A DNA stretch of 64,000 nt, taken from assembly GCA_002917775.1 (NCBI GenBank), contig KZ627156.1, positions 790,838 to 854,837 of the forward strand, read 5' to 3'. A program made the translations under genes and the position numbers. Below are positions 133 to 5,125 of the stretch, one piece after another. Every line of letters starts with the position of its first letter. Position 1 is the first letter of the stretch. The notes under the pieces were generated by a model that ran no database searches, had not been told where the DNA came from, and was given only the letters and a program-made list of their open reading frames with translations. Origin of the DNA: Glaciozyma antarctica PI12 (Eukaryota; Basidiomycota; Microbotryomycetes; Kriegeriales; Camptobasidiaceae).

Positions 133-3100
133 CTACGGCTCCACTCCCTTGTTCGAAATGTCCTCGGCCAGCGGGGTGTCATCGAACGAGACCGCTCCAG
201 ATCCGTGCATGACCTGCGCGACGAAAGCGAGAACATCAGCACGATGCGAGAGCTGAGAGTCGTACAGCGCTCGACGTACCTGCCCGAAACTGTCTGCAGC
301 GAAACTGCTCGCCCGACTCTTGCCCAACTGCACCAGGCGCGCTCCCTCGGCGACGACGCTGTCGAGCGAAGGGTCGAGCGCGCGCATAGGCGAGAGCGGC
401 GAAGGACCAGGTCGACCAGGCGGAGAGTGGCTGACAAAGTCGGCGAGCTTGGAATCGACGGCGTCGAGGTCGGTGGGAGGGGGGAGGTGGGGGGGAAGGC
501 CTCCTGCGGCTGCGTCGACTGGGATCGGGGCGACTTCGGAGACGACGGAAGGGACTGCCGCTTTCGAGCTCGATTCGGGAGTGATGACGGGTGTGGGAGA
601 GGTGACCTGGAGAGCTGGGCCGCCGGGGGCTGCGGGCGAGGTGAAGCGTAAGGACGATCCCAAGCTCTTGTGCTCGATGTGGAGGTGCGCTGAGATCACG
701 TCCGCCTTCGAGTCGAGTCCCGCGTTGATCGCCGGTGCAGAGCGCCTGAACGATCCTGCGTTCGAGCTCGCCTCGGAACCTGGGCCGCGCTGCGAGAATC
801 CGCTGAGGTACGCCATCGAACCCCATTCGAGGAGCTTTTGCTGAAGCCAGGGGAGAGAGACGGGCTTGGTGAGGAAGTCGTTGCAGCCGGCGGCGAGAGC
901 GGTAACGCGATCGACTTGAAGGGACGAGGCGGTGAGGGCGACGATAATGACGGGCATGCTGAGGAGAGGAGAGGTGGGGCTGCTGAGCTGCGAGGGTCCT
1001 CCCGAGGTCGACGAGCTGGGAGAAGTGGCGTCCGAGTTGGGGCTGGTGATGAAGGTGCCGACGTTGTTGGCGCGCTCCATTTCGCGAATCTCCCGCGTCG
1101 CCTCGATACCGTCCTTGACGGGGAGCTGGATATCCATCTGCAAAGGAATCTATCAGTGCTTGCGCTGCTTGCCGACGAGGAAAGGACGAACCAGGACGAG
1201 ATGAAAGTTTCCAGCCTTCCACTTCTGAACGGCTTCCTCTCCGTCTTTCGCGACGGCGTACTTGATCCCCTTCTTCTTCATGAACATCGACAAGATCGTC
1301 TGGTTGATGGGGTTATCTAAACGAAGGGCGTTAGCGCGAAAAAGGACGGAGGTGAAAGCAGCGCACCTTCGACGATGAGAACGTTGATCGGAGGAACAAT
1401 CGGCAGGGTCGACTTGCGCGTCAGGTGCCTGCGAATCCTTGGCATCGTGGCGGATCCCGACGGTCGTCGTCCGTAGAACGAAGGAGGCGAAGCTGTGCCA
1501 GGTTGAGCTCGCGGCGCACTCGAGTTGGGCTGCGAGACGGGCGTCCCACTGGGCGATATCGGCGGGCTGACTCCGCTGGCACTACGTCGGGTGACGAAGG
1601 AGGGACTGGGGCCGCTGCCGTTGCGAGGAGAGACGGAGGGACGAATGGAAGCTGTTCGAGAGAGGACCGATTCGGGCGTGGCGTTCTTCGACTCCTCGGG
1701 GCTGACGTCCTCCGAGTTGACCCTCGACTTGGCCGCTGTGATGAAAGAGTCGAGGGTGAGGGCGGGAGTGCCGGCGGGGAGGACGAGAGAATCGGTCGAA
1801 GCCGTCGACGTGTTCGAGACCATCCGTCGTCCTTGCCCGAGACCGATCTCGTGTGGAGCGGCGACGGTGCGAGCAGGGGACTCGCCAATGTAGTCCGGCG
1901 ATTCGTGCAGATCGGCATCTCGCTCCGTCGACCGATTCGTCGCCCGCTCCTTTGCGCTGGCTGTTCGAACCGAGCGCGTCTGAGGCTGGAAGAAGATCGC
2001 AGGTCGCCCATCGGGGCTCTGAATGACCATTCCTTCGCTCGGCGTTGTCCCATCCATTCCTTCCGCGACGCAGGAGAAGTACGAGGCCTGGTCGTTCGAG
2101 ATCTTGCCCAGCGGCGAGGGAGGATGCCCGACGGGGCCGCCAGGGAAGTAGATGGGAGGCGTGCGCGGCTTCGCGCCGAAGTTCCCCTGCTCTCCCTTGC
2201 TCGCGAGCGCGTCTGCGGCTGCCGTGTCGAAATCTTGCTGGTTGGAGAGAGCTGGACTGAGGCGGGGCGTCCAGTACTGGATTCCGGGAGAGGTTGGGGA
2301 GGTGGCGATGGGAGGAAGGGAGGGGTCGACGGCCGGACGCTTGAGCGCGGTCCACAGTGCGGTGATGATTCGACGAGGGCCCGCCGGCTTGGGGATGACG
2401 AGGACGTCGGGGAAGGAAGGGGATCGGCTCGAGGCGAGGGCGTCCTGAACGATCTTCTTAATCGCCTTGTAGTGCGTGAGGCTGGCAAAGTGGATGATGA
2501 CGGAGTTCGCGCCGGCGAGGGGAACTTGGTGGATCTGGCGAACGTGCGGGCTCGACCTTGTGCGACGGCTCGAGAGCTGAGGTCGCTTGCTCATCAGCGT
2601 CGGTGCGTAGTGGAGAGGCGGAGCTCGGAGGGCCATTCGTCATTCGTCGAAGGGTGGGGACGTCGTCGTCGATAATGATAAGGTTGGAGGTTGGTTCAGC
2701 AGCTCCGCCGTTCGAGGATCCCGGCGAAGGAAGGTCGGCGGTGCTCTTGAGCGGCGAGTTGGTAGGCTCGTTCGCGGCAGGCGTGCTGGGAGACCCGGCT
2801 TCCACGCTCCCGCCAAAGCCAGAGTCGAACCTCGCTCCTCCTTCCCTCCAGCCCTTCCCTCCTTCGTCCTGCGCAGACCCCGGTGCTAATCCCGTCGGGC
2901 TCGGGTCGCTCTGGCCGTCGAGAGGGACGTGCGAGACGTCCATTCCCCAGCCGGCGAGGTACGTCGTGAGGTGCTTCGCAAACGTGCTCTGCTCTCCAGC
3001 GTGCACGGCAACACGCGTTCCCCTGAGTTCCGCGACGGAGAACTTCTTGAGCTCGTCCATCGACGGCTCGTGTCCGACGGCGCCGAGAGTCGCTCGCTGG

Positions 3101-5125
3101 CGTCCCAGCCGGGTCGAGGGATCGTCTTCCTCGACGGGCGGTCGTGCGCCTGGAAGTACTCCGCTGACGATCCACGATTGAGTGCCGACTTCGGCGGGAC
3201 CAGCACTGATCTGTAGGTCGAGTTGCGCGAAGAGGGATTTGGCTGAGGAGGTGGAGAAAGCGGGCGAAGGGAGCGAGGGAGGGGGAGTGTCGGAATCGTA
3301 GGAGGCGGTGGCGGTGGCGGAGAAAGTGTGGAGAACTTCGAGGGAGACAGTCCACCACTCCTGAAGCGATCGTCGAGTGGGAATGGCCGTATCCTCGGAT
3401 CCGAAGGACGCCTCGGGAGTCGGGACTGAGGGCGCCTGAGCAACCGCTGCTAGGAAGCGAACTTCGACCGTCGCGCCTGGCGCGGCATCTGCGAGGATGT
3501 GGTGGAGGATCTAAAAGCTTTCGTCAGCTTCGTCGTCTCGAACGGAGGGGCGAAGGAGACATACCCATACGAGTACGACGCCCCAAGCACGCTCGTCGGC
3601 CCTCACTAGTAACTCCCTCGAAGCGGTGTCCTTTTCCATCTCATGCGTCTCCAGCGTCTGTACGTTCTCCCCACCAGGCGTCGAGACCGGACTCGGAGAG
3701 CTCCCTGCCCCCACCTGCCCAATGACCAACTCCACACCCCTCGACCCCGCGTCCGCCGCCAAGACATCCGCTACGCCCTGAAGCAGAGCCGCGAAGTCAA
3801 AGACTTTGTCCTCTTCGTCGCCCTCCTCCACCTCCTGCGAGGGTGGCGATCCTTCTCCGCCTGCCTCTCCGATCCATTCGAAGCCTCGGAAGAGACGCCA
3901 GATAGCGGCTGCACTGACGGCGGGTACGGAGATGGTGCTTGGTGCGTGAAGCTCGTGAGAGTAGGCGGAGGTGACGGGGAGGTTGCCGCCGAGGGAAGGG
4001 AAGGAGGAGTTGGAGGTACTGCTGGAGGAGCTGATGCTTGCTTGGTCCGAGGCGGTGTGAGCGTTCGAATTAACGCTTGCGCGTCTGCTGATGGGGTTGA
4101 AGGCGGATACGAAGGAGGGGAGAGGGAGGGGAGGGGAGAAAAGGTGGGCGGGGCCGAGTTGTGCGAGGAGGAGGAGGGCGGGAGGTAAGAGAGTCGCGAC
4201 GAGTGAGAGAGGATGTTCGATGGGAGGTCGGGAAGCCTGGGCGGAGGGCGAGAGTGGATCCCCGACAGGCTGGTGTACGCCCAACGGACTTGGGAGAGAC
4301 GGCGTCGTCCCAGACGCGTGCGAGCCGTCCCCCTGCTGTACCGTACGCTCGCTCGCAATACTCCCACGCTTCCCCATCTTGACACTCCCGATAGTCCCCT
4401 GCGAATGGAACGTTGCCGGACGAGGTCCTCCCACAAACACGCCGTCCATCGGGTCACGCTCTCTCGAAGAGCCTGCTGAAGACCCCGGCGAGCGCTCTCC
4501 TGTTCCGATCGCCGGCGACAACTGGGGAGAGAGTGGCGGGGAGGTGCTGGATGCGTCGGTCGTCGCTCTCCGACGGAAGCTAGGCCGGAACTTCTTTCGC
4601 AAGCTCGAGCTCGACGTTGAGGCGCCGGGAAGGTTGAGGTGTAGGGAGGAGGCGGGGAGAGGAGGACGAGTCGTAGGTAGAGCACTGCTGCCTTCTCCTG
4701 GACTGGAGACGCTCCGCGGGAGAAAGGGGCGTGATGGGGCGGAGGAGGAGGAAGAGGGTTGGCGGAAGGAGGAGATGAACCGGAGGAGGAGCGAGGTGCC
4801 GGGAGTTGCGTGGGGAGGGTGACTCGAGTCGAGAGGTACAGTAGCTGCTGCCTAGCCGTTAGCGCTCCTCCACCGATCCGTGCCCTGCCAGTTGCTCACC
4901 AGAGGAGGTTCTACTTGAGGGCCTCTTCCTGCCGTCGCCTGGCCTGCTCGACTCGGGAGTCACGGTCCCTAGACTACTACCGCCGCCTAGGCTGTCGTCC
5001 ACCACATCCTCCAAGCTCGCGCTGCCTGTGCTTCCGCTGGACCGCGATCGTTGGGAGTTCAGCGACGCGGCGCTACGTCTTCTTGACACGCGAGAGGAGG
5101 GAATCGAAAGGCTCTCGGCAGCCAT
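133..5125 (-). CDS. SSK1: SSK1-type response regulator of the HOG pathway (frame broken by a 7-bp duplication)
   Basis: Response regulator that receives phosphate from the HPt protein Ypd1 and controls the Ssk2/22 MAPKKK in the HOG osmostress pathway. The C-terminal receiver domain shows the acidic pocket (VLIVED), the phospho-acceptor Asp in VLMDIQLPVKDG, the ALTAS Ser/Thr site and the FLTKP lysine. The long Ser/Pro-rich N-terminus includes a conserved IIIDDDV segment. The start is the ATG at 5125; an upstream in-frame GTG was not used. Introns fit at 4848-4899, 3511-3564, 1317-1366 and 1138-1191. The exons sum to 4783 nt, which is not a multiple of three. A tandem 7-bp repeat at 2634-2647 accounts exactly for the shift; without one copy the protein would be 1591 residues. 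Cryptococcus Ssk1 is also long. Family identity is clear. Whether the gene works in this strain is not. Confidence 0.93.
2634..2647. repeat. 7-bp tandem duplication inside SSK1
   Basis: The unit cattcgt occurs twice head to tail (2634-2640 and 2641-2647). On the coding strand this is acgaatg twice, directly after the codons for the conserved DDDVPTLRR segment. It moves the frame by one base, and the reading frame downstream is otherwise open and conserved. Confidence 0.95.

What the first reader, a model, noticed from the sequence alone, without database searches (positions are those of the whole stretch)
2634..2647. A 7-bp tandem duplication breaks the SSK1 reading frame
Spliced at four well-formed introns, the SSK1 exons sum to 4783 nt, one more than a multiple of three. 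The frame is open and family-like on both sides. The switch is needed between the conserved IIIDDDVPTLRR and ALRAPPLHY, exactly where cattcgt is duplicated. Dropping one copy gives a continuous 1591-residue protein with an intact receiver domain. A true lesion would remove the receiver and probably disable the two-component branch of HOG signalling. An alternative is an 86-nt intron from a weak gtcccc donor, which would delete conserved residues.
Basis: partly seen in the sequence, partly recalled or inferred. Interest (0 to 1): 0.8.

Follow-up and report, generated by a model that had tools for sequence, protein, structure and literature searches.

The report
Frame break in Antarctic yeast SSK1
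In the assembled genome of what is almost certainly a sea-ice yeast, the gene for the stress-signalling protein Ssk1 is thrown out of frame where a 7-letter repeat stands in the place of two conserved codons; this is either a very recent loss of the gene or an error in an old draft assembly, and only sequencing the strain again can tell.

Summary
In detail: cattcgt is perfectly duplicated at 2634-2647 and the five SSK1 exons sum to 4783 nt, 3n+1. The genome matches Glaciozyma antarctica PI12, a sea-ice yeast sequenced by 454. As assembled, the product is 853 aa (793 native) and lacks the C-terminal receiver.

The reading changes. In 47 of 47 relatives matching both motifs, TLRR and the LRAPP-like motif are four residues apart; dropping one 7-bp copy would leave the protein two residues short. 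The second copy stands where relatives have exactly two codons, the first an invariant Leu (38 of 38): seven letters for six, net +1. No frame-restoring intron with a good donor was seen.

Around the break, 73 of 73 near-invariant columns are unchanged, so the break is recent or not real. The assembly does hold an error-like frame break, at a C run in an Hsp110 gene, but of another type. My odds: 50% real recent loss-of-function allele, 40% assembly or sequencing error.

The break falls in helix 3 of a receiver-like domain that Pfam misses.

The parts
4900..5125 (-). SSK1 exon 1, start codon at 5125
   Evidence: this exon gave no match to the five relatives compared, so the start is the weakest part of the model
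3565..4847 (-). SSK1 exon 2
   Evidence: 41-49% identical to five relatives
1367..3510 (-). SSK1 exon 3, which holds the break
1192..1316 (-). SSK1 exon 4, receiver (downstream of the break)
   Evidence: 73-98% identical to five relatives
133..1137 (-). SSK1 exon 5, end of the receiver and C-terminus (downstream of the break)
2641..2647 (-). first copy of the 7-nt repeat (acgaatg on the coding strand)
2634..2640 (-). second copy; stands where relatives have two codons
2458..2460 (-). premature stop (TAA) of the literal product, 60 off-frame residues after the break
2340..3015 (-). N-terminal receiver-like (degenerate) domain that the break splits, mapped from P0119 residues 16-240
   Evidence: model of the relative P0119, not of the window
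835..1387 (-). C-terminal receiver domain (PF00072), spread over exons 3-5, not made from the literal frame
2577..2661 (-). rejected 85-nt intron candidate (donor GTCCCC)

Best explanation
The assembled SSK1 gene of Glaciozyma antarctica PI12 carries a recent net +1 change of the templated kind: a 7-nt copy of the adjacent sequence stands where relatives have two codons. Shown: the copy, the net +1, the family spacing, the single locus found, and the literal 853-aa product. Inferred: that the change is in the organism and is a loss-of-function allele, and that slippage of the copying strand made it. The product would keep the N-terminal half, end 60 off-frame residues after the break inside a split receiver-like domain, and lack the C-terminal phospho-receiver. 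The two-component branch of HOG signalling would then be cut in this strain.
For: Perfect repeat exactly at the frame break. Spacing of four residues in 47 of 47 relatives matching both motifs. The residue replaced first is Leu in 38 of 38 rows of the alignment, and Leu or Ile in 64 of 64 proteins matched by a looser pattern; a mere one-letter error would not also change it, whereas a 7-for-6 replacement explains both. No run of four or more identical bases at the break, unlike the error-like break found elsewhere. Only one locus in the genome. A natural SSK1 frameshift allele is known in Cryptococcus deneoformans (PMC7861560, passages).
Against: No reads, transcripts or second isolate were available. 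The genome is a 454/Newbler draft with at least one error-like frame break. No sign of relaxed constraint: 73 of 73 other near-invariant columns in the 303-residue comparison are unchanged, and divergence from outgroups equals that of P0119. Ssk1 is needed against freeze-thaw in C. neoformans (PMC6288190, passages), which makes its loss in a sea-ice yeast unexpected.
Confidence: 0.5

Rival explanations
1. Assembly, consensus or gap-closing error: the strain's SSK1 is intact and the repeat comes from the 454/Newbler draft.
For: 454 at 117x with Newbler 1.1, reported as gap-free scaffolds (PMC5791967, passages). An Hsp110/SSE1-like gene on C9 changes frame at a run of six C with 22 nt between the two matches; its two pieces abut in yeast Sse1. 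One such break in 62 adjacent match pairs, 10,246 profile residues. Full constraint around the SSK1 break.
Against: The SSK1 break is not in a homopolymer; it is a perfect 7-nt copy and also changes an invariant Leu, which is not the usual 454 error (recalled).
Confidence: 0.4
2. An unannotated intron of 85 nt (2661-2577) removes the break and restores the frame.
For: GT-AG, length 3n+1, a CTRAY-like site 17 nt from its end and a CAG acceptor.
Against: Donor GTCCCC lacks the G at position 5 that 7 of 7 introns which I placed have (4 in SSK1; 3 elsewhere placed by eye). It would remove conserved residues, among them KRPQ. The corresponding stretch is read through without a stop in the exon-3 frames of P0028 and P0119. 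Of 58 splice combinations my script found, only the best 25 were printed; GC-donor ones scored higher but had no CTRAY-like site.
Confidence: 0.04
3. Programmed +1 frameshifting, or separate translation of the downstream half from the ATG inside the second copy, still makes a working receiver.
For: The downstream frame has an ATG in the second copy (2636-2634) and the downstream half is fully conserved.
Against: Relatives are in frame, so no shift site is conserved; no in-frame stop sits at the break; the +1 sites known to me in yeasts (recalled, not searched for) look different.
Confidence: 0.03

Closest known systems
SSK1 frameshift allele of Cryptococcus deneoformans 431alpha (PMC7861560, passages)
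   Same: natural frame break in the SSK1 of a basidiomycete yeast, predicted and genetically supported loss of function
   Different: there a single-base insertion in exon 2, supported by a cross; here a 7-nt copy in exon 3, known only from one assembly
454 homopolymer indel error, as in the Hsp110-like gene of the same genome
   Same: net +1 in a conserved gene of the same assembly
   Different: that one is at a run of six C; the SSK1 one is a repeat that replaces two codons
AmiR and CheY-like receivers, for the split N-terminal domain
   Different: long inserts, helix 2 not modelled, acid pair of strand 1 missing; Foldseek alone not significant (best E 0.033)

Membership tests
Ssk1 response regulator | C-terminal receiver domain, PF00072 | tested here: met
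   Encoded in the DNA: 33.7 bits over the cut-off 30.2 in ORF 133-1149; a second piece at 18.9 bits. Not part of the literal 853-aa product.
Ssk1 response regulator | homology to Ssk1 proteins outside the receiver | tested here: met
   27 hits, several named SSK1 or mcs4 by their sources; exon pieces compared.
Ssk1 response regulator | phosphotransfer from Ypd1 and activation of Ssk2 | not testable with these tools
   Only a YPD1-like HPt match was found in the genome.
Loss-of-function allele | frame break in an otherwise conserved gene that removes a needed domain | tested here: met
   (in the assembled sequence)
Loss-of-function allele | present in the organism (reads, second isolate) | not testable with these tools
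   No reads; no protein of the same species was seen in the hits.
Sequencing or assembly error of the 454 homopolymer type | indel in a homopolymer run | tested here: not met
   longest run within the repeat and the codon after it is three
Programmed +1 frameshift | shift conserved among relatives | tested here: not met
   relatives read through in one frame
Receiver domain (the split N-terminal domain) | receiver fold | tested here: met
   model of P0119; mean pLDDT 65.5, 93 of 303 residues at 90 or more
Receiver domain (the split N-terminal domain) | full set of catalytic residues | tested here: not met
   Asp131, Ser193 and Lys224 in 38 of 38 rows, but HAGE-like residues instead of the acid pair; which column is which catalytic position is my mapping from the model

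The most novel reading that the evidence does not exclude
A sea-ice yeast truly lives without the Ssk1 receiver: PI12 or its lineage has cut the two-component input to Hog1, the branch that Cryptococcus neoformans needs to survive freeze-thaw, and bypasses it. The break hits a second, degenerate receiver domain in basidiomycete Ssk1 that Pfam does not see.
Probability: 0.35. Interest if true: 0.6.

Novelty: new member of a known kind. Interest (0 to 1): 0.35.

Why it matters
If the allele is real, a psychrophile lacks the branch of HOG signalling that C. neoformans needs for cryostress (PMC6288190, passages), and the role of Ssk1 in cold life becomes directly testable. If it is an error, it shows that the genome used for this yeast holds frame errors at repeats as well as at homopolymers. 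Either way the analysis points to an N-terminal receiver-like domain in Ssk1 whose function is open.

Tried and rejected
Rejected: (1) the dropped-copy version of the gene, on spacing. (2) Frame-restoring introns: 58 combinations found by script, best 25 printed. (3) A second copy of the gene: one locus only. (4) The neighbouring RAD16-like gene as an error gauge: Pfam pieces in two frames, uninformative because of its many introns. (5) PF00221 as an organism marker: no match. (6) A first PDB look at the Hsp110 stretch was in the wrong frame and found nothing; repeated in the right frames. (7) PF00118 pairs that looked like frame breaks on C16 and C10 are ordinary introns. (8) One PF00012 pair on C13 lacks the middle of the profile and was not resolved. 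(9) PF00072 over the whole genome did not list the SSK1 receiver itself, so that list is incomplete. (10) Two papers that hold Ssk1, receiver domain and pseudo-receiver and six on 454 errors were seen as listings only.

Full report
What the sequence shows. The two copies of cattcgt at 2634-2647 are there. The gene on the minus strand has five exons that sum to 4783 nt, 3n+1. The literal, unaltered translation of the joined exons is 853 residues: 793 native, then 60 out of frame to a TAA at 2460-2458. The C-terminal receiver (PF00072) is encoded downstream and would not be made. Searches of the genome with the DNA of the break (480 bases) and with the downstream half (423 aa) find this one locus.

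Which organism. The genome has 19,983,266 bases in 18 contigs. Of 13 matches to the ice-binding family PF11999, six lie within 7 kb on C5 and four on C16; the others are on C12 and C17. In Glaciozyma antarctica PI12 three antifreeze genes lie on scaffold 5 and three on scaffold 16; its largest scaffold is 2.28 Mb and its G+C 60% (PMC5791967, passages). C16 is 2,285,101 bases, and the window's G+C is 57-64% in 2-kb steps. The paper gives 20,033,549 bases in 21 scaffolds, slightly more than is held here. I take the genome to be PI12; this is inferred from the layout, not read from a label. PI12 came from sea ice at Casey Station and was sequenced by 454 at 117x with fosmid Sanger reads and assembled with Newbler.

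What the relatives say. Three protein searches gave 27, 118 and 3 hits, 120 distinct proteins. In the 47 that fit my pattern for both motifs, TLRR and the LRAPP-like motif are four residues apart in every case; the other 73 did not fit the pattern and were not counted. By a looser pattern, the residue second after TLRR is Leu in 60 and Ile in 4 of 64 proteins; in the alignment of 38 chosen proteins it is Leu in 38. The closest relatives, P0028 (735 aa; 86% and 87% on the two sides) and P0119 (303 aa; 86% and 92%), read TLRR-MLL-ALRAPP in one frame. In the window the ATG is followed by the second acgaatg and then by the Ala codon. So the second copy holds, with seven letters, the place of two codons: net +1. 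Dropping a whole copy would leave the protein two residues short of all 47, so the plain duplication is the less economical account. I could not see the relatives' DNA; the 7-for-6 description rests on their proteins.

Age. In the 303-residue comparison with P0119, 73 of 73 near-invariant columns that the window covers are unchanged (the 74th is the column at the break), and the window is as far from three outgroups as P0119 is. All exon pieces are open, and the five after exon 1 match relatives. The gene was under full constraint until very recently, or still is.

Real or error. I looked for other frame breaks in four conserved families: 93 matches, 62 adjacent pairs, 10,246 matched profile residues (matches). 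Three pairs left too little room for an intron by my criterion (under 40 nt). One is an ordinary intron; one, on C13, lacks the middle of the profile and was not resolved. The third, an Hsp110/SSE1-like gene on C9, changes frame at a run of six C; its two pieces reach residue 195 and start at residue 193 of yeast Sse1. The assembly thus holds at least one error-like break, roughly one per 30 kb of conserved coding sequence with a very wide error, and the method misses breaks inside a single match. The SSK1 break differs in kind: no long homopolymer, a perfect 7-nt copy, an invariant residue changed. I weigh this as 0.5 for a real recent allele and 0.4 for an error; these odds are judgement.

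Other routes to a continuous product. My script found 58 frame-restoring splice combinations and printed the best 25; among these only the GTCCCC donor had a branch-like site, and only its 85-nt version had it at a usual distance of 17 nt, against 11-15 nt in the four SSK1 introns. Seven of seven introns that I placed have G at donor position 5 (and by eye); GTCCCC does not. A programmed shift is not supported, since relatives have no shift.

Consequence if real. In C. neoformans ssk1 deletion gives osmosensitivity, milder than hog1 deletion, and extreme freeze-thaw sensitivity, though Hog1 can still be phosphorylated on osmotic shock without Ssk1 (PMC6288190, passages). A natural SSK1 frameshift allele is known in C. 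deneoformans (PMC7861560, passages). A YPD1-like HPt is present in this genome. Of papers that hold both Glaciozyma and SSK1 one was listed, a review with one mention of SSK1 that I did not open; the review PMC8306469 on PI12 holds no SSK1, HOG1 or MAPK in its main text.

Verdict. A true feature of the assembled sequence, now better described, whose reality in the organism is undecided.

Noticed in passing
window 2340-3015 (minus strand); relative P0119 residues 16-240: Ssk1 of these fungi has an N-terminal receiver-like domain with long inserts and an incomplete catalytic set, not detected by Pfam.
   Followed up: partly
L027 (G000:C9:178700-180800), near C9:179905-179928: Hsp110/SSE1-like gene changes frame at a run of six C, with no room for an intron; its two pieces abut in yeast Sse1.
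   Followed up: yes
L024 (G000:C8:830800-833000): YPD1-like HPt gene; one intron placed by eye, otherwise open frames.
   Followed up: partly
G000, 13 places on C5, C12, C16 and C17: Many ice-binding (PF11999) matches, which point to Glaciozyma antarctica PI12.
   Followed up: partly
window from 2681: A second perfect period-7 duplication lies 33 bases beyond the end of the SSK1 one, also in exon 3, without a frame break.
   Followed up: no
G000, whole genome: No match to the aromatic ammonia-lyase family PF00221; the search is exon by exon and can miss a gene split by introns.
   Followed up: no
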